From: a virus
Reading direction: 5' to 3' (one strand)
IMG/VR virus record: IMGVR_UViG_3300037083_000054
Location: 1 to 64,000 of that record
DNA length: 64,000 nucleotides
Part shown: piece after piece, positions 12,427 through 51,154 of the stretch
Layout of the letters: every line of letters begins with the position of its first letter
Numbering within the stretch: position 1 is the stretch's first letter
The notes under the pieces: generated by a model
Database searches by the model: none
What the model saw: only the letters and a program-made list of their open reading frames with translations
Told to the model about the DNA's origin: nothing
Translations under genes and position numbers: made by a program

Positions 12427-12506
12427 AATCCTGAACCCCGATTGTTCATAATCCCATTTTTCAGTATGCTTTCGACACGAAACTCGGAGCGGCAATGACA
12501 GCCGCC

Positions 12507-12527
12507 ATAAATAAGCGACTTATTTAT
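12507..12527. promoter_or_regulatory. dispersed palindrome, copy 1
   Basis: Nine-base arms ATAAATAAG and CTTATTTAT flank CGA. It sits in the 143-bp gap between two operons, 43 bases before the ATG at 12570. Near-identical copies are at 27825, 36939 and 43851, all between gene clusters, so this is probably a repressor or activator site. It has no U-tract and weak GC content, so it is not a terminator. Confidence 0.7.
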
Positions 12528-12569
12528 CTCTGGATGAAGACATCCAATTTAGATGCGAGGGGATGGAGC

Positions 12570-13085
12570 ATGACGCGGAACAAGTTATTGTTGATTTCTC
12601 TGATCGGGGCTGCAATCTGTGGCTCGCTGCTATTCGTTATCTCGGACGCAACGGTCGTGCCGTTAGTGGCCAAAGGAGCCGGTCCGGGCGGCGTGCAGGT
12701 GACGACTCCGGGCTGGGCGTCATTTGTGGTGACACTGCTTGGGACGCTCGGTTTCACCAGTTCCAGTTTTATTCTGTGGATTGTGGGACACATCAAGTTT
12801 CCTGCTGGCGTCATCCCGTCGTCGGGACAGTCGGTCGCTCCAACGAGTTCTCCATTACCTGAATTGGCTCAATCGTTCGCGGCTTATATGGCGGACAAAA
12901 CGAATCGAGCGGCTCAGCGTCGATTTGTGTTCGCTCTGATTGACTCGGCCAGCCTGATTCAAGGCGTCACGACCTCGCACGAGAACGGCGTGATTGTGTT
13001 CAAATACAGCGGGTATGCCGATCCGACACCGCCTGCGGCTCCAGTTGCTCCGGCTGTTCCTGCTGCCCCAGTCGCGGGAGCATAA
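12570..13085 (+). CDS. two-TM membrane protein (171 aa)
   Basis: Start ATG 12570 follows GAGGGGATGGAGC; an upstream start at 12495 would swallow the palindrome. Two hydrophobic helices (LLLISLIGAAICGSLLFVIS and FVVTLLGTLGFTSSSFILWI) are followed by a soluble part and a Pro/Ala tail (PPAAPVAPAVPAAPV). First gene of the 12570-18861 block rich in membrane proteins. A holin or structural role is possible but unproven. Confidence 0.6.
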   Translation: MTRNKLLLISLIGAAICGSLLFVISDATVVPLVAKGAGPGGVQVTTPGWASFVVTLLGTLGFTSSSFILWIVGHIKFPAGVIPSSGQSVAPTSSPLPELAQSFAAYMADKTNRAAQRRFVFALIDSASLIQGVTTSHENGVIVFKYSGYADPTPPAAPVAPAVPAAPVAGA

Positions 13086-13088
13086 CCA

Positions 13089-13445
13089 ATGATTAAAAAG
13101 ACGTTTTTCGTTGTTCTGATCGCACTGCTCTTGTGCGGTTGCGGTCCGCTCTCGGTCCCGACCGGCGATACGAATCCATCGACTCCCATCGGCAAGGAAA
13201 CCGTCTGGTCTGATATTGCGAGCTATGTCGATGGCAAGGATCTGCAAGGCAACGCATTGTCGAATATGAAGGGCATTGATCTGATCCCCGATTCCGAATC
13301 GTTAGAACTGATCGTCAAGCGACTCCGGCAAGTCGGTGAAATCGACGACAATGGCAAGGATTCGTTTTACAAAGCGTTTCCGGGGATTGATACAAAAGTC
13401 AGGCCTCTGACGCCTGATGACGCAAAAACGTTGCGAGGAATGTGA
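13089..13445 (+). CDS. lipoprotein (118 aa)
   Basis: A classic lipoprotein signal peptide: KK, then a hydrophobic core FFVVLIALLL, then lipobox LLCGC. The mature part is soluble and acidic with a DxD-rich end (FPGIDTKVRPLTPDDAK). Phage lipoproteins can act in superinfection exclusion or lysis (spanin-like); which applies here cannot be told. Confidence 0.75.
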   Translation: MIKKTFFVVLIALLLCGCGPLSVPTGDTNPSTPIGKETVWSDIASYVDGKDLQGNALSNMKGIDLIPDSESLELIVKRLRQVGEIDDNGKDSFYKAFPGIDTKVRPLTPDDAKTLRGM

Positions 13446-13446
13446 C

Positions 13447-13575
13447 GTGCTTACCTACTCGGAAGTCCTCTGGAATGCGAATGCTGTTTCGTTGTTCTGT
13501 GCGATTGTCGGCGGCGTGATTTTGATTGTGGTCGCGGAATTGATTTTCGGTGCCAATGAGTGGCGGGATAAGTAA
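13447..13575 (+). CDS. single-TM small protein (42 aa)
   Basis: GTG start at 13447, one base after the lipoprotein stop, with a TAA at 13573. The product has one clear transmembrane helix (SLFCAIVGGVILIVVAELIF) between short soluble ends. The TAATG overlap with the next gene supports it. Confidence 0.55.
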   Translation: MLTYSEVLWNANAVSLFCAIVGGVILIVVAELIFGANEWRDK

Positions 13576-13799
13576 TGCTCCTACAATTGCATCGCCAAAA
13601 GCGAGCCGATCTGAACAAGACAGAAATTGTTGCTCAGTGCGATCCAAATCAGATTCCATTCGTGTCGAAGGAATGGAAGGCCAATACTCTCCATGAGTGG
13701 ATCAAGTCAGTTCAGTCTCGCCATGAAATAGCTGATGACGAAGTCTGGTTGTTGTGTGATGAGGATTCGCCGTACTTTGTTCGAGCGGCTGGAGAGTAA
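13575..13799 (+). CDS. hypothetical 74-aa protein
   Basis: Begins in the TAATG overlap. Charged, soluble, with WIKSVQSRHEIADDEVWLLC. No family recognised. It directly precedes the peptidase gene (3-base gap). Confidence 0.55.
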   Translation: MLLQLHRQKRADLNKTEIVAQCDPNQIPFVSKEWKANTLHEWIKSVQSRHEIADDEVWLLCDEDSPYFVRAAGE

Positions 13800-13802
13800 A
13801 CG

Positions 13803-15209
13803 ATGCCCACGAATTTTGGATGGACTTATTCTGCCACAAGAATTGACGATGCCAAAGGCCGCATTGCTGCTGCTGGTTTTCAGTTCTCTTATGCCGCTGA
13901 TCGTCCGTCGATGTTGGGCTATTGGAAGCGACGACAAGCGGCGGGGATTCACTGGATTGCGGCCCAAGATGATGAGATGAAACTGAATGGAAAATGGCGT
14001 GATCCGAACAATCAGGCACGCGGAACCTGCCATCCAGCGGGCGTTATGATTTTGATGGCGGACAAAACCGAGAAGCCCATCCAGGAAGTTGTGATCGGCG
14101 ATCGCGTTTTGAGTCATACCGACGAATCACGTCGAGTGTCTGATATTGGCGTGAGAAAATATAGCGGCGATTTACTTTCGTTTGATGCGGTTGAGTCTGG
14201 CAGATGCTGCATTGTGACTCCAGATCATTTAATCGCTCACTTTCCGGGGCTTGCCGGAGCATGGCTTCGTCCTGAATTTGCTCCGGCCTACAAAATCGAG
14301 ACCGGCAATCGAATCGGCACGTTAACAGCCAATAAATCGGAATCAAATCTGAGTCGATCGTTTGATCGAGTAAAAATGGCAAGCTTCGCGAGAGTGACGG
14401 GATGCAGTGTCCATAGTATCGAAGTGGAAGCGGATCACACTTACTATGCCAATGGAATGCTTGTTCATAATTGCGTGGGCCAAGGCTCGTCGCGTGCCAT
14501 TGAAGATGTGATTAACTCGCGAATCGTCGATGGCGAGATTATGGGCGAATCGCAATTGGTTGCGTTTGAGCCTATGTACGGTTTTGAGCGAAATACGCGA
14601 TGGCAAAAGACGCATCCATTTGGTTGTCGATGCGGCAATTGTCCAGATGGTTTGGCTGGAGCCGATGCCGCCGCATTTTATTCACAGCATGGATATCTGA
14701 AACGCGATGTCTACGGGTCTATTGATCTCAGCCAACCGCAAGAACATTTCGCCATTGACTGGAACAACTCTGGCGTTCCGGGTGATGTACTGAACGCATC
14801 GACAGGACATCAGGTTCAATGCCATTCCTCAGACTCGTGGGATGAATATGCGGATGCCATCGCCTCAAAGGATTGGGGACACATTTGCCTTCCAAAAGTC
14901 TTCGGCTATTCGCGAGTGATTGTCGGTCCCTATGGAACGGTTGAGCCGGATACCGATGCGGGCCATGATACGGAGTGCGTAGGATGCTGCACATTACCGA
15001 GCAACGAGACGGCCTTCCTGATTCAAAATTCGTGGGGACTGGGTGTCAAATATCCGCCATCAATTCAAGTGCTCAACGGCAATGGAGCGACTGTCAGCAA
15101 ACAAATGCGTCCTGGCTCCTACGCTGTTCGACAGAGCGTATTGGAAGGATTAGGCAATGCCGCTGAACGCATCAGTTGCGACATTCAAGGATCGAGTGTT
15201 TTTCGATAG
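13803..15209 (+). CDS. papain-like cysteine peptidase interrupted by an intein
   Basis: 468 residues before splicing, 320 after. The intein spans residues 76-223. Joining the flanks gives RGT-CVGQGSSRAIE, the nucleophile region of a papain-type (C1A-like) peptidase, with catalytic Cys224 being the +1 extein residue. The other catalytic residues are visible as AGHDTEC (His388) and IQNSWG (Asn409), the NSWG box of papain. Predicted to cleave peptide bonds; in this block of membrane and lipoprotein genes it could serve lysis, head maturation or host-protein cleavage. Activity would depend on splicing. Confidence 0.85.
   Translation: MPTNFGWTYSATRIDDAKGRIAAAGFQFSYAADRPSMLGYWKRRQAAGIHWIAAQDDEMKLNGKWRDPNNQARGTCHPAGVMILMADKTEKPIQEVVIGDRVLSHTDESRRVSDIGVRKYSGDLLSFDAVESGRCCIVTPDHLIAHFPGLAGAWLRPEFAPAYKIETGNRIGTLTANKSESNLSRSFDRVKMASFARVTGCSVHSIEVEADHTYYANGMLVHNCVGQGSSRAIEDVINSRIVDGEIMGESQLVAFEPMYGFERNTRWQKTHPFGCRCGNCPDGLAGADAAAFYSQHGYLKRDVYGSIDLSQPQEHFAIDWNNSGVPGDVLNASTGHQVQCHSSDSWDEYADAIASKDWGHICLPKVFGYSRVIVGPYGTVEPDTDAGHDTECVGCCTLPSNETAFLIQNSWGLGVKYPPSIQVLNGNGATVSKQMRPGSYAVRQSVLEGLGNAAERISCDIQGSSVFR
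14028..14471 (+). other. mini-intein (148 aa) in the peptidase
   Basis: Starts with Cys76 (CHPAGVMILMADKTEKPIQE...GDRV), has the block B TPDH motif (Thr139...His142), and ends YYANGMLVHN with the His-Asn pair before Cys224. Splicing blocks are present but there is no room for a homing endonuclease. Standard Cys/Asn/+1 Cys chemistry should be possible. Confidence 0.88.
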
Positions 15210-15229
15210 TCAAATTATAAGGACGTCAA

Positions 15230-17035
15230 ATGTCTTTCAAATTCTCCGATAAAGTCTGCTGGAAATGTCAGGATGCCGTCGTGCATGTGCATGGACCCAA
15301 TTGCAGTGAATGCGGTTCGTCGGTCCCGAAGCCGATGCTGACATGGCGATTGCTCGTTTTGATATTGGCAGTTCTTGGGTTTGTCCTACTGTCTGCGATC
15401 GCGATCTTTGCGGGACCGAAAGAACATGTTGCGATTGCCGAAGCGATTGTCTATGCCGCCAAACACAAGCGGCCTGCATTGCAATCGGACACCTTCCAAT
15501 CGAAACCATCTACGGAAGTGGGCGAAGTTCCGTTGCCGATTGATGAGATCCCGAGTCCTACGCCGATTGAAATAATTCAACCGGTTCCCGCCGAAGAACC
15601 AAATCCGCAGCATCCGATTGTTGCGGTTCTGCAAGATGAATTGGAGACGGCGAAAGAGAAATTGAATGCGGCGAATTATCGAATCATGGAATTGAAGCTG
15701 GCCAATTCCGATGCCGGGAAATTCGAACTGGTGACGCTGAATTTGTGCGATGGAAAAGTCTGCGTGGTGGTCGAAGGGGACATTGTCAAAAGGACCACTA
15801 AAACGACTCTGATCGCTATTCCGGAAGGCGTTCTCAAGGAAGTGACTGGCGTTCCGGTCATCACTGTTCAGAATGCCGGAGAAGCCTATCTCGCCCATCA
15901 AATCGAGTCGATGGACGGAATGGCATTGTTTCAAGTCGACGAGCCGATCGGGACACCAAAAGACACTTCCGGGACCGTGATCGCTCAGCAAAGGTCGTCC
16001 TCCCCTTTGTTGGGTTTGCCGTCCGGTCTCGGAAGTCTTTCGGCTCCGATGCGATTAGAGATTCCGGCGATGGTTGCACAGCCGATTACTCATACGGCCA
16101 TCGAAGCGACGACCTATGTGAGTGAAGGATGTGCTCCGTGTCATTGGATGCAAAAAGCGAATGGTCCGGGAGATAGTCGCGTTCATTTCACCTATTCGAA
16201 TGCGGCCCCTCCGAAGATCTTCGTTCAGCGAGGTCGACGATATGTGCCCGAAGATATCGGCATCAACCCCGTGACATTCTGGCAAGACGGTGACGGAGGA
16301 TTGCGATATCACGTTGGCTTGGCGACGACCGATGAAATCTATGCGAAGATCTGCGATGGTCGGAATTCGCCGCCTGCCGAAGTGCATCAAGGCTATGCGG
16401 CGACGGGAGGAGCGGGAGCGATTCACGCTCGGAATGGCATTCAAAAGTTCGCAGCGATTTTGCGACAGCGAATCGGCGAAGGGAATCACATCGCGGGATT
16501 GTGGGATCGGTCCGAAGCGAAACTGAATCTGTTCGCGGCAAAAGACTTCGGATTGAAAGACTGGATCGGGCGTCAAGGGCGATTGCAGATTGACGCCCCG
16601 AATGCGATTGGACTACCGGTCAAGACAATGGCAATTAGCTATGACATCGTTGGAGATCGCATCTTTCTCGATGCGGAACGATTCGGATTGGAATTAAGCC
16701 TGTTGACTCCGAAGCAAGGCTATGGAGCGGCCCCGGCTCAATTCGTGGTTCTCGACGATGCTCTATTCATCTATTCGGTCGTGCAATTGATGGAGGCGAT
16801 TTGGGGGCTTTTGCATCCGAGTGCCGATATTATTTTGCCCGATCAGATTTCGTGGGATTGTGTGCTGAATGGCGACACGATCACAATCACATTTGATAAG
16901 TCTCCGAGTATTTGTCTCAAATGGCTCATGACGTTCAATCTGGCAGTGAAAAAGGTCGTGATTACGGATTCGAATATCCACGTCGAGTTTAGTGGTTCTC
17001 GTTGGATCAAGAGCCGCGATTTTGATGTGAAATAA
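15230..17035 (+). CDS. zinc-ribbon, single-TM protein with thioredoxin-like CxxC domain (601 aa)
   Basis: Domain order: an N-terminal zinc ribbon (CWKCQD...CSECG), a TM helix at about 39-62 (LLVLILAVLGFVLLSAIAIF), a long Pro-rich and helical linker, then YVSEGCAPCHWMQKAN with a CxxC typical of thioredoxin-fold proteins, followed by KIFVQRG...VTFWQDGDGGLRYHVGL. The remaining 200 residues are beta-rich and unrecognised. The catalytic domain would sit on the trans side of the membrane. A disulfide-exchange role is inference from the CxxC. The zinc-ribbon plus TM start is shared with three proteins in the transposon regions. Confidence 0.65.
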   Translation: MSFKFSDKVCWKCQDAVVHVHGPNCSECGSSVPKPMLTWRLLVLILAVLGFVLLSAIAIFAGPKEHVAIAEAIVYAAKHKRPALQSDTFQSKPSTEVGEVPLPIDEIPSPTPIEIIQPVPAEEPNPQHPIVAVLQDELETAKEKLNAANYRIMELKLANSDAGKFELVTLNLCDGKVCVVVEGDIVKRTTKTTLIAIPEGVLKEVTGVPVITVQNAGEAYLAHQIESMDGMALFQVDEPIGTPKDTSGTVIAQQRSSSPLLGLPSGLGSLSAPMRLEIPAMVAQPITHTAIEATTYVSEGCAPCHWMQKANGPGDSRVHFTYSNAAPPKIFVQRGRRYVPEDIGINPVTFWQDGDGGLRYHVGLATTDEIYAKICDGRNSPPAEVHQGYAATGGAGAIHARNGIQKFAAILRQRIGEGNHIAGLWDRSEAKLNLFAAKDFGLKDWIGRQGRLQIDAPNAIGLPVKTMAISYDIVGDRIFLDAERFGLELSLLTPKQGYGAAPAQFVVLDDALFIYSVVQLMEAIWGLLHPSADIILPDQISWDCVLNGDTITITFDKSPSICLKWLMTFNLAVKKVVITDSNIHVEFSGSRWIKSRDFDVK

Positions 17036-29269: not shown

Positions 29270-30577
29270 TTACTGTGATGCCAATTCTTTTTCCATTTCC
29301 TCAATTTCAAGATCTGCGACCCAAGCGTCGCGAGCGTAAGACACCGGTTTTGTTGGTTCGATCGTTTTGTTGTCGCCCCAGAAAATTGGCTCGATCCCAA
29401 GTTCGCATTGTTCTTGAATCAGGCAACAGAGATTGTGAGCGATCAGCTTGCACAAAACCTCATTGGTCATGGCGACCAAGTTTTTGCTGCGAACAGCGTC
29501 GCCGAACTTTCTTTTGACCATGCTGAACGTACTTTCGACGTTTGATCGACGATGATAGTGAGCGAGGTATTCATCCTTTTTGAATTCGAAATAGTGCAGC
29601 ATCTTCTTGAATAGACCACCGACTGATCCAGTCGCATTGTCCTTGAACGCGATGAATGCTATCCCACCGAGATTAGCGACAGTTTCGAAGTTCTCCAGGC
29701 TACTGTATGCCTTGTCCGCCGAGACTTCTTCAATCATGAACGTCTTGCCAGTCTCTTTCACGAGTGGTTCAAACTGCGGGCAATCTGCCGAGTTCTGATC
29801 CATGATCCGAACTGCTGTCACGCAATTCGTTTTGATTCCGCAGGCGATGTGACATTTGATCCAGACGTGCTTCAGTTTCGTCACCCCATACTTCGCGTCA
29901 TACCAGCGTTCGAACTTATTTGTCGAGAATCCGCTGCTGTCGATCGCAAATCGAGTCTCGACCACTTTCAATGGTGCGGCACTCTTGCCGACCAGGGCCG
30001 TGAGAAATGGCGTCAACGCGGGGTTCTCCATGAATGCTGTCGTTTTCACGCCAGGAATCGGTCGCGAGATAAATCCTCGTGCTTGTGCTTCTCGCAAGTC
30101 GGACGAAAACCGTCGACTGCTGAGCGTGGTATAGACCTTGAAGACACAGGCGAAAATCGAATCACGAACTGTGTGCGGTTTCGGCCCTTTTCTCCAGAGT
30201 TCGCGTTCTGGTTCTTTTAATCCCCTGCACAGATCGTGCAGCAATTCCTGTACTCGGTCCTTTTCCATGCTCTGAGCCTTATTGTAAGCCGCCCAGTTTT
30301 GCTTGTAGGTTGTTTTCTTGGTCAGCGTGATGCTCTCGGTCTCTGTCACGCTCCCATCGGGATTAAACTCGCGTTTGGCAGTAATTTCGACGGCATATTG
30401 ATGCTTGCACTTGAAACCGTTCTCCGAATGGTCCGGACATGTGCAGGTCTTTTTGACAGGATCGACGCGGTAAATCGTATTGGCATTTGATTGTGAAGGA
30501 ACCAGCCAAACATTCGACATTCGGTTCAATTTGCACACGGCAGCGATGATCAATCCGCGTTGTTCTCTGGCATCCAT
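29270..30577 (-). CDS. SWIM-finger DDE transposase 1 (435 aa)
   Basis: N-terminal SWIM zinc finger at about 50-75 (CTCPDHSENGFKCKHQYAVE, CxCxnCxH). The catalytic triad candidates are FAIDSSGFS (Asp), VSADKAYSS (Asp) and the conserved end RSNVESTFSMVKRKFGD (Glu), as in IS4/IS5-type DDE_Tnp_1 enzymes. It would bind the terminal repeats and catalyse cut-and-paste. The start MDAREQRGLI is preceded by a short hairpin and an antisense RNA region, so expression is probably tightly controlled. Confidence 0.88.
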   Translation of the reverse strand: MDAREQRGLIIAAVCKLNRMSNVWLVPSQSNANTIYRVDPVKKTCTCPDHSENGFKCKHQYAVEITAKREFNPDGSVTETESITLTKKTTYKQNWAAYNKAQSMEKDRVQELLHDLCRGLKEPERELWRKGPKPHTVRDSIFACVFKVYTTLSSRRFSSDLREAQARGFISRPIPGVKTTAFMENPALTPFLTALVGKSAAPLKVVETRFAIDSSGFSTNKFERWYDAKYGVTKLKHVWIKCHIACGIKTNCVTAVRIMDQNSADCPQFEPLVKETGKTFMIEEVSADKAYSSLENFETVANLGGIAFIAFKDNATGSVGGLFKKMLHYFEFKKDEYLAHYHRRSNVESTFSMVKRKFGDAVRSKNLVAMTNEVLCKLIAHNLCCLIQEQCELGIEPIFWGDNKTIEPTKPVSYARDAWVADLEIEEMEKELASQ

Positions 30578-49220: not shown

Positions 49221-50438
49221 TTACTTCGCGAATGCAGGTTCGATACCTAGTTCGTAAAACTCACTGATTAGGCAGCAGATGTTATGTGCCAAAACCTTAC
49301 ACAGAACTTCGTTTTTCATGGCGATTTCGGTCTTGCTGCGAACTGAATCTCCGAACTTGCGTTTTACCATTGAGAATGTGGATTCAATGTTACTCCGCTT
49401 GTGATACGACTGAAGAAACTCCTCACGGTACAAGCTGAAGAAATGAAATGCCTTGCCAAACAATCCACCGATGCCGCCTGTAGTTCCCGAACGAAACGTG
49501 ATGTATGGCTCGGCCCCGAGAGCATTGATGGCTCGGAAGTTCGATTCGCTCGCATACTGAGTGTCGGCACTCACTTCCTTAACGTCGAAATTCTTTGCGG
49601 TTGTCTGCATGAGTGCTGGCAGAAGTGGTGAATCATTCGCGTTGCGGTCAAGGATTTCCACAGCCGTGATGACATTCGTTTTCACCCCGCACACGGCATG
49701 CAGCTTGACCCAAGTATGCTCAGTCCTGACTTTTCCATATTTATGATCGAACCATCTAATGAACTTCGACGATGTGAAACCTGATGAATCAACCGCAAAA
49801 TCGGTTTCAACGCTTTTGAGCGGCAAACTGGATGTCTGGATCAATTGAACAAGATGTTCCGTCATTTCTTCATCTTCTAGCGCAGTGCTGATCGCATTGA
49901 AATGCGGTGTTCGTTCGATATACCCCTTGTACTTCGCATCGTCCAGATCGCACATAAATCTTCTCTGGCTGACAGTGCTGTAAACCTTGAAACAGGCCAT
50001 GAATATGCAGTCAGACATGGGAATTCGTGGGCGACCGCGTCCAGGCGTCGCTAAGGGTGCCTTGACGTTGTCGCACAGCGATCGCAATAGCGACTGAAAG
50101 TGATCTTTCTCGCTCGTCTGCGCCTGATTGTATTCCGCCCACATTTGAGGATATGTCGGACGTTTGACGGTCGTAGAAATAGTCACTTCCTCAGTCGTTG
50201 TCTCAGTGCCGTCCGCGTTCTGCTCGCGTTTGATGACATATCGGACGGCGTAAATGTGCTTGCACTCTTGACCACGTTTTTCGAAGTCCGGGCAATTGCA
50301 ATAGGGCGTTTGCTCATCTGCCACGACGGTGTATTTGCCTTCGCCTGTCTGACTGGGGACGATCCACACTTGTCCTTTTTGCACAATTCGACTTCCGGCA
50401 GCGATCGTAGCACCACGTTGTTCTCTTGCTTCGCACAT
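49221..50438 (-). CDS. SWIM-finger DDE transposase 2 (405 aa)
   Basis: Start MCEAREQRGATI at 50438; the frame is open far upstream but that part is leader and operator. SWIM finger YCNCPDFEKRGQECKHIYAV, acidic residues in FAVDSSGFTSSKF, VSADTQYAS and RSNIESTFSMVKRKFGDS. Clear homologue of transposase 1, with similar motif order and end (LCKVLAHNICCLI). Expression probably controlled by the RHH operator and the antisense RNA. Confidence 0.88.
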   Translation of the reverse strand: MCEAREQRGATIAAGSRIVQKGQVWIVPSQTGEGKYTVVADEQTPYCNCPDFEKRGQECKHIYAVRYVIKREQNADGTETTTEEVTISTTVKRPTYPQMWAEYNQAQTSEKDHFQSLLRSLCDNVKAPLATPGRGRPRIPMSDCIFMACFKVYSTVSQRRFMCDLDDAKYKGYIERTPHFNAISTALEDEEMTEHLVQLIQTSSLPLKSVETDFAVDSSGFTSSKFIRWFDHKYGKVRTEHTWVKLHAVCGVKTNVITAVEILDRNANDSPLLPALMQTTAKNFDVKEVSADTQYASESNFRAINALGAEPYITFRSGTTGGIGGLFGKAFHFFSLYREEFLQSYHKRSNIESTFSMVKRKFGDSVRSKTEIAMKNEVLCKVLAHNICCLISEFYELGIEPAFAK

Positions 50439-50443
50439 GACTT

Positions 50444-50560
50444 GCCTCTTTTTCTGTTGAGGCATTCCCGATAGAATCGCAATTGCTATGTCGCGGATTG
50501 GCGGGAACGCCAGTTTGTGATTCGCCCCGGTTTCGATTCGCAGTCGATTCCGGGTTTTCC
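50444..50560 (+). ncRNA. predicted antisense RNA over transposase 2 leader
   Basis: Hairpin GGCATTCCCG...AATC with GATTGGCGGGAACGCC (50461-50511), then a terminator hairpin CCCGG/CCGGG and TTTT (50526-50558). Same arrangement as at 30582 and 52322. Confidence 0.65.
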
Positions 50561-50574
50561 TTACGCATAGTATT

Positions 50575-50640
50575 GTACGGACATAATTATCGGAAGTCAA
50601 TAAGAAACCATTGACAAAAATAATTTTGTCCGTACACTTC
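50575..50640. promoter_or_regulatory. divergent promoters and RHH operator, element 2
   Basis: Arms GTACGGACA (50575-50583) and TGTCCGTAC (50627-50635). Plus strand: -35 TTGACA (50611-50616), 16 bases, -10 TACACT, giving a nearly leaderless RHH mRNA (ATG 50645). Minus strand: -35 TTGACT, 17 bases, -10 TACAAT for the transposase. Each -10 overlaps an arm, so one protein could shut off both. Confidence 0.7.
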
Positions 50641-50644
50641 CAGC

Positions 50645-50902
50645 ATGCACGAAAAACGACCAGGAAGACCGCCAAAGTCAGGCGTCGCATTCGGAGTTCG
50701 CATCGAGATTCGAGCGACGGACGAAGAGCGAGACCGCATCGACAAGGCGGCGAGCATTGCCGGTAAAGAGCGATCCGAGTGGATTCGTAGCACGCTGCAA
50801 TTAGCGGCGAATCAGACAATTGAAGAACATGATTCACAACCAGTGTTGAAAATGACGAAGAGATCTGTAAAATCAAAGAAGACCGGCCATGCTGGAACAT
50901 GA
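50645..50902 (+). CDS. ribbon-helix-helix regulator (85 aa)
   Basis: Basic start RPGRPPKSG, then the RHH pattern VRIEIRATDEERDRIDKAAS and SEWIRSTLQLAAN, as in CopG/MetJ-like proteins. Probably represses itself and transposase 2 through the inverted-repeat operator. No Shine-Dalgarno, consistent with leaderless translation. Similar to 52552 and 63806. Confidence 0.78.
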   Translation: MHEKRPGRPPKSGVAFGVRIEIRATDEERDRIDKAASIAGKERSEWIRSTLQLAANQTIEEHDSQPVLKMTKRSVKSKKTGHAGT

Positions 50903-51154
50903 CCGGCTTCGAGAGAAAAACGCCAATCTTCGGGATTGGCACCGATGGCATCCTGCCATCACCTGCTATCCGTCGAGGAACAGCCTGTCATTGCGGCAAA
51001 TTGCCGTCTTGTCAGATCGAACCAAAACGGAAGCAGGCCATGAAGCCATATGGCTTGCATGGCAGTCCTCCTGAAAACCGAGCGATTGGATTATCTTGGG
51101 TTCTAAGTCAAAGTACCCAATCCTCGGTCACTGAGGCACCACTATCCACAGTGG

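What the first reader, a model, noticed from the sequence alone, without database searches (positions are those of the whole stretch)
13803..15209. Mini-intein at the catalytic cysteine of a papain-like peptidase
The +1 extein residue Cys224 is the predicted nucleophile, so the peptidase cannot work before splicing. This would be a built-in activation switch. The intein has splicing blocks but no endonuclease.
Basis: partly seen in the sequence, partly recalled or inferred. Interest (0 to 1): 0.77.

Follow-up and report, generated by a model that had tools for sequence, protein, structure and literature searches.

The report
Intein splitting phage papain-like protease active-site
A phage gene for a papain-type protease is interrupted, exactly at its catalytic cysteine, by a small self-splicing protein element that must cut itself out before the protease can be built; the site is hit repeatedly in related phages, so it looks like a favoured landing spot for a genetic parasite rather than a proven control switch.

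Summary
ORF 13803-15209 (468 aa), in a 122.8-kb tailed-phage record, carries a 148-aa class-1 mini-intein (residues 76-223). It has Cys1, block B TPDH, block F/G HTYYANGMLVHN and Cys+1, and there is no room for an endonuclease. Splicing would leave a 320-aa protein. The exteins belong to a widespread phage family: 112 distinct intein-free relatives keep a contiguous Q-x4-C motif plus His and Asn at 99-100%. A model of one relative matches papain-family structures (xylellain, Z 18.5), so Cys224 (+1) is the predicted nucleophile.

Fourteen other phage contigs carry inteins at exactly this site, most with LAGLIDADG endonucleases and one more mini-intein. Four contigs carry another intein just after the catalytic Asn. 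The same phage has a second mini-intein whose +1 Cys is the third Cys of a radical-SAM CxxxCxxC.

Intein insertion at active sites is a documented rule, as is invasion of proteases. 'Inactive until spliced' is very likely but unmeasured. 'Activation switch', meaning evolved regulation, has no positive evidence; a homing parasite that lost its endonuclease explains everything seen. This is a new, well-supported member of a known kind, and no earlier report of an intein at a papain-type nucleophile was found.

The parts
13803..14027 (+). N-extein, residues 1-75; holds the predicted oxyanion-hole Gln71 (14013-14015)
   Evidence: Aligned with intein-free and intein-bearing relatives; Gln conserved 99%
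14028..14471 (+). mini-intein, residues 76-223, 148 aa, class 1, no endonuclease
   Evidence: TIGR01443 above cut-off, Hint families, Hint-fold structure matches, alignment with other inteins
14028..14066 (+). block A, CHPAGVMILMADK, splicing nucleophile Cys76 (intein Cys1)
   Evidence: Sequence; alignment
14217..14228 (+). block B TPDH, residues 139-142 (T-x-x-H)
   Evidence: Sequence and position; alignment
14409..14471 (+). blocks F and G, VHSIEVEADHTYYANGMLVHN, residues 203-223; penultimate His222 and terminal Asn223; the usual block F Asp is Ser205 here
   Evidence: TIGR01443 match 205-224; alignment
14472..15209 (+). C-extein, residues 224-468 and stop; papain-like catalytic domain
   Evidence: Family alignment; fold of the family
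14472..14474 (+). Cys224: +1 splicing residue and predicted catalytic nucleophile (Cys76 of the spliced protein)
   Evidence: Cys conserved 100% in 112 intein-free relatives
14964..14966 (+). His388, predicted catalytic His (240 after splicing)
   Evidence: Conserved 100%
15027..15029 (+). Asn409 of FLIQNSWG, predicted catalytic Asn (261 after splicing)
   Evidence: Conserved 99%

Best explanation
The gene encodes a phage papain-like (C1A-type) cysteine peptidase invaded at the codon of its catalytic cysteine by a class-1 intein that has since lost its homing endonuclease. After translation the Hint fold forms. Cys76 attacks the Thr75 carbonyl, the chain is passed to Cys224, Asn223 cyclises, and an S-to-N shift joins Thr75 to Cys224. 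This regenerates the motif Q-A-R-G-T-C at the head of the catalytic helix and a 320-aa enzyme. The same cysteine therefore acts twice: once as the +1 splicing nucleophile and then as the protease nucleophile. Before splicing the Gln/Cys loop is split and the peptidase should be inactive. The intein is kept because its site is so conserved that only exact loss is tolerated; control of the enzyme by splicing is not needed to explain it. Shown here: the intein and its boundaries, the empty site in relatives, the conserved tetrad, the fold, repeated invasion of the site. Inferred: that it splices, that the precursor is inactive, that it began as a homing element.
For: Intein motifs and family hits; Hint-fold matches of the precursor model. 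Intein-free relatives with a contiguous motif and Q/C/H/N at 99-100% in 112 distinct sequences. Papain fold: Foldseek best hit xylellain 3ois E 9e-9, then cathepsins; VIA Z 18.5 over 237 residues, rmsd 3.5; PF00112 in 14 of 38 relatives. Fourteen contigs with an intein at the same junction, most 321-379 aa with LAGLIDADG-like motifs, one a second mini-intein of 170 aa (L203). A further intein 3 residues after the catalytic Asn in L106/L110/L122/L126. Second mini-intein of the same phage at the third Cys of CxxxCxxC, with empty-site relatives. Intein GC 48% against 51% for the exteins, no sign of recent arrival. Literature: native sites lie on average 8.3 A from active-site residues (PMC3359363); phage TerL inteins sit between the P-loop Lys and the nucleophilic Thr (PMC5050341).
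Against: No splicing or activity data exist. Block F Asp is replaced by Ser205, so the first step may be slow. The window extein is only about 27-29% identical to its relatives and matches no Pfam model on its own. The relative's model has modest confidence (pLDDT 63, pTM 0.73), and the extein part of the precursor model is poor (pTM 0.37).
Confidence: 0.87

Rival explanations
1. Regulated activation switch: splicing is slow or conditional (redox, metal, host state), so the intein delays an enzyme that would be harmful early, like a zymogen pro-domain.
For: Insertion makes activity depend on splicing; two endonuclease-free inteins persist at this site (window, L203); block F Asp missing and extra Cys135/136/201 could make splicing tunable. 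A MoaA intein is redox-gated and phage inteins can have tuned rates (PMC10663303; PMC5050341).
Against: More than 100 relatives lack it; same-site inteins elsewhere carry homing endonucleases; no conserved regulatory feature shared by the same-site inteins.
Confidence: 0.1
2. The Hint domain is a degenerate or cleaving (BIL-like) domain that does not ligate; the two halves are released or the gene is dead.
For: Block F Asp is Ser; phmmer against PDB best matches a BIL domain (E 0.0013), and Foldseek ranks a BIL domain first.
Against: All splicing nucleophiles are present (Cys1, block B His, His-Asn, Cys+1); insertion is exactly in frame at a conserved site; peptidase tetrad intact, not decaying.
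Confidence: 0.05
3. The extein is not an active peptidase but a structural or pseudo-enzyme member of the papain fold, so insertion at the Cys has no catalytic meaning.
For: Neighbouring paralogs in related phages lack the Cys (L055:5184-6785, L172:5867-7483); no substrate known; window extein outside Pfam C1.
Against: Gln, Cys, His and Asn are kept at 99-100% in 112 sequences and in the window.
Confidence: 0.1

Closest known systems
Phage active-site inteins (mycobacteriophage TerL P-loop inteins, RecB-like PD-(D/E)XK, TOPRIM; PMC5050341)
   Same: In-frame intein in a catalytic motif of a phage enzyme; for TerL the +1 residue is itself a catalytic Thr
   Different: Host protein is a cysteine peptidase and the +1 residue is its covalent nucleophile
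Protease inteins: ClpP of green-algal chloroplasts and bacteria (PMC5784728)
   Same: Intein inside a protease
   Different: ClpP is a serine peptidase of another fold; position relative to its catalytic residue was not compared here
Pyrococcus abyssi MoaA intein, redox-trapped (PMC10663303)
   Same: Intein in an oxidoreductase of the radical-SAM type (the superfamily of MoaA is from my own knowledge); nearest kind to the second intein of this phage; shows that conditional splicing exists
   Different: Conditional behaviour there is experimental; here nothing comparable is shown
Vibrio phage K389 helicase mini-intein (L196)
   Same: About 31% identity over the intein; sits at DE|C..HN|CHH, so +1 Cys again lies in a catalytic motif
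   Different: Host protein is a helicase
Xylellain and papain-family (C1A) peptidases
   Same: Predicted fold and Gln/Cys/His/Asn set of the family
   Different: Oxyanion Gln stands 5 rather than 6 residues before Cys (papain spacing from my own knowledge); no recognised pro-domain; sequence identity about 15%

Membership tests
Class 1 intein | Nucleophile at intein position 1 (Cys1) | tested here: met
   Cys76, block A aligned with other inteins
Class 1 intein | Block B T-x-x-H | tested here: met
   TPDH 139-142
Class 1 intein | Block G His-Asn followed by Cys/Ser/Thr +1 | tested here: met
   His222-Asn223-Cys224; TIGR01443 above cut-off
Class 1 intein | Block F Asp (present in about 60% of inteins, PMC7765530) | tested here: not met
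   Ser205 at that position; Asn or Cys in most of the inteins compared here; not an obligatory feature
Class 1 intein | Hint fold | tested here: met
   Foldseek against PDB, inteins and related Hint domains at E 1e-8 to 1e-5, model of middling confidence
Class 1 intein | Empty site in homologues | tested here: met
   112 distinct uninterrupted relatives
Class 1 intein | Splices | not testable with these tools
   Needs expression
Mini-intein | No homing endonuclease | tested here: met
   148 aa in all; no LAGLIDADG match, unlike L003
Papain-family peptidase C1A | Papain fold | tested here: met
   Model of relative L104, Z 18.5 to 3ois over 237 residues; tested on a relative, not on the window extein itself
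Papain-family peptidase C1A | Catalytic Cys, His, Asn and oxyanion Gln in that order | tested here: met
   Gln71, Cys224, His388, Asn409; 99-100% conserved
Papain-family peptidase C1A | Match to Pfam PF00112 | tested here: inconclusive
   14 of 38 relatives match, best E 1.9e-4; window protein none
Papain-family peptidase C1A | Peptidase activity | not testable with these tools
   Needs assay
Conditional (regulatory) intein | Splicing rate responds to a signal | not testable with these tools
   No data; no conserved sensor feature seen in same-site inteins

The most novel reading that the evidence does not exclude
A splicing-gated protease: the endonuclease-free intein has been kept as a one-shot, possibly redox- or metal-sensitive zymogen device in which the splicing nucleophile becomes the protease nucleophile, timing a membrane- or lysis-associated phage protease.
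Probability: 0.1. Interest if true: 0.75.

Novelty: new member of a known kind. Interest (0 to 1): 0.42.

Why it matters
It gives a clean natural case in which one cysteine serves protein splicing and then catalysis, with intein-free relatives, same-site full-length inteins and a second mini-intein available for comparison. It also identifies a family of phage papain-like peptidases whose two catalytic loops (Cys and Asn) are both intein sites, which bears on why inteins choose active sites and on whether endonuclease-free copies are kept for regulation.

Tried and rejected
Independent origin of the window intein against the other same-site inteins: the free tree puts it with off-site inteins, but support is weak, its branch is long and the AU test does not reject one origin (p 0.34); left open. 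Precursor model: alignments that mixed whole intein-free proteins misaligned the intein, so partial rows were used (A8); even so the extein half is unreliable, and no geometry of the unspliced active site is claimed. Profile search against PDB sequences found no papain relative with A1 and only a weak cathsilicatein hit with A4 (E 0.44); the fold comparison was needed. No relative of L009 in 50,697 phage records, and the window's own hits there are to the intein only. The one genome-contig scan gave one locus, in a Flavobacteriales MAG. Paper searches with 'intein' plus papain, cysteine protease or zymogen found no native intein in a papain-type peptidase; the library is open-access only. Lysis role: the small one-TM proteins beside the gene are suggestive but no holin or endolysin was identified; not claimed.

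Full report
What is there. The window is part of a 122,834-base virus record with terminase and portal genes, i.e. a tailed phage. The ORF 13803-15209 is open for 468 codons. Residues 76-223 are a 148-aa intein: block A CHPAGVMILMADK, block B TPDH, block F/G VHSIEVEADHTYYANGMLVHN, then Cys224. TIGR01443 scores above its cut-off; Hint and intein families match below theirs. The modelled precursor gives solved inteins and other Hint-fold domains as its best structural matches.

The host protein. A search with the whole protein found two kinds of relatives: inteins in other proteins, and peptidase relatives. Widening it gave 112 distinct intein-free phage proteins of about 310 residues. In these the motif is continuous, for example ERQTTGDCVSHATRNA, and the four residues expected of a papain-type enzyme (Gln, Cys, His, Asn) are kept in 99-100%; the window has all four: Gln71, Cys224, His388, Asn409. 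A model of the relative L104 from 38 sequences (pLDDT 63, pTM 0.73) has xylellain and cathepsins as best hits (E 9e-9; Z 18.5 over 237 residues, rmsd 3.5), and 14 of 38 members match PF00112. So 'papain-like' stands, by fold and residues, although the window sequence itself is too divergent for Pfam. The +1 residue of the intein is the predicted nucleophile.

The site is a repeated target. L003/L004 carry a 379-aa intein with LAGLIDADG (Pfam) between TGD and CVSH. L143, L141, L139 and L103 do the same. A DNA-pattern scan for an intein end (HN or NN) directly before CVSH-x-TRN gave 14 contigs, all peptidases with an intein at this point wherever the N-junction is held. Of the distinct ones measured, the large ones are 321-379 aa with endonuclease motifs and one (L203) is a second mini-intein of 170 aa. 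Four contigs have a different intein just after QNSWG, the catalytic Asn loop, ending CGN|S. Whether the window intein shares an origin with the other same-site inteins is open (AU p 0.34); its best pairwise match in the set is the Vibrio phage helicase mini-intein (31%).

The same phage does it twice. A search of the record with an intein profile finds exactly two inteins. The second, at 109417 onward, interrupts a radical-SAM/SPASM protein as CNAKCPW|intein|CFYVSSEYK; relatives read CNAKCPWCFY. Its +1 Cys is the third cysteine of the [4Fe-4S] motif. L005 has an intein at the second cysteine of the same motif in another phage, and the Vibrio phage helicase intein sits in DE|CHH.

How it works. 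Established intein chemistry (class 1) applied to the residues present gives ligation of Thr75 to Cys224. Cys224 is first the acceptor of the N-extein thioester and then the protease nucleophile. In the precursor the Gln71-Cys224 loop is broken by a folded domain, and Cys224 is preceded by Asn223 of the intein, so peptidase activity before splicing is very unlikely (inference). The block F Asp is Ser205, which may slow the first step (inference; PMC7765530 describes the role of this Asp).

Switch or parasite. That activity requires splicing follows from the position and applies to most inteins at active sites. That splicing is used to control activity has no support here: the element is absent from most relatives, its siblings at the site carry endonuclease motifs, and inteins near active sites are the rule (mean 8.3 A, PMC3359363; P-loop and other active-centre sites in phages, PMC5050341). 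Conditional splicing does exist (MoaA, PMC10663303), so it is worth testing, at about 10%.

Novelty. Inteins in active sites and in proteases (ClpP, PMC5784728) are known. No report of a native intein at the nucleophile of a papain-type peptidase was found in the open library, which does not prove absence. I file it as a new member of a known kind.

Noticed in passing
G000 record position 109417-109872 (L002:1504-1944), outside the window: Second mini-intein (147 aa) of this phage, in a radical-SAM/SPASM protein, +1 Cys being the third Cys of CxxxCxxC; intein-free relatives L191 and L193 show the empty site.
   Followed up: yes
L106:1927-3870, L122:6-1952, L110, L126: A different, 339-aa intein in the same peptidase family directly after QNSWG (catalytic Asn loop), with Gly-Asn instead of His-Asn at its end.
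   Followed up: partly
L203 (contig IMGVR_UViG_3300002231_003017): A second endonuclease-free intein (170 aa) at the catalytic-Cys site in another phage.
   Followed up: partly
L055:5184-6785, L172:5867-7483, L154:3733-5067: Paralogs near the peptidase in related phages that lack the catalytic Cys (IKSGTSHA instead of TTGDCVSHA); L055 and L172 keep the His and NSWG: possible pseudo-peptidase partners.
   Followed up: no
L196 (Vibrio phage K389, OZ196347.1): Mini-intein inside a protein annotated only as DNA helicase, splitting what reads as a DECH box so that +1 is its Cys.
   Followed up: partly
window 12495-17035: The peptidase lies among small proteins with one predicted membrane segment or a lipoprotein-like start; intein-free relatives (L009, L102, L103, L104) have the same kind of neighbours, so a membrane or lysis role is possible.
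   Followed up: partly
window 15230-17035: 601-aa protein with an N-terminal CxxC-type zinc-ribbon-like start, a membrane segment and a CxxC (EGCAPCHWM) stretch; no confident family.
   Followed up: no
window 29273-30577 (-) and 49224-50951 (-): Two transposase-like genes (phrog_2262) inside the phage record.
   Followed up: no
L016, L018, L021: Roughly 1370-aa phage proteins ending in a Hint domain with HN followed by Lys or Arg rather than a nucleophile (BIL-like, probably cleaving).
   Followed up: no
window residues 275-280 of the ORF (CRCGNC): A Cys-rich insertion of the C-extein that the intein-free relatives lack; possible metal site or disulfides.
   Followed up: no
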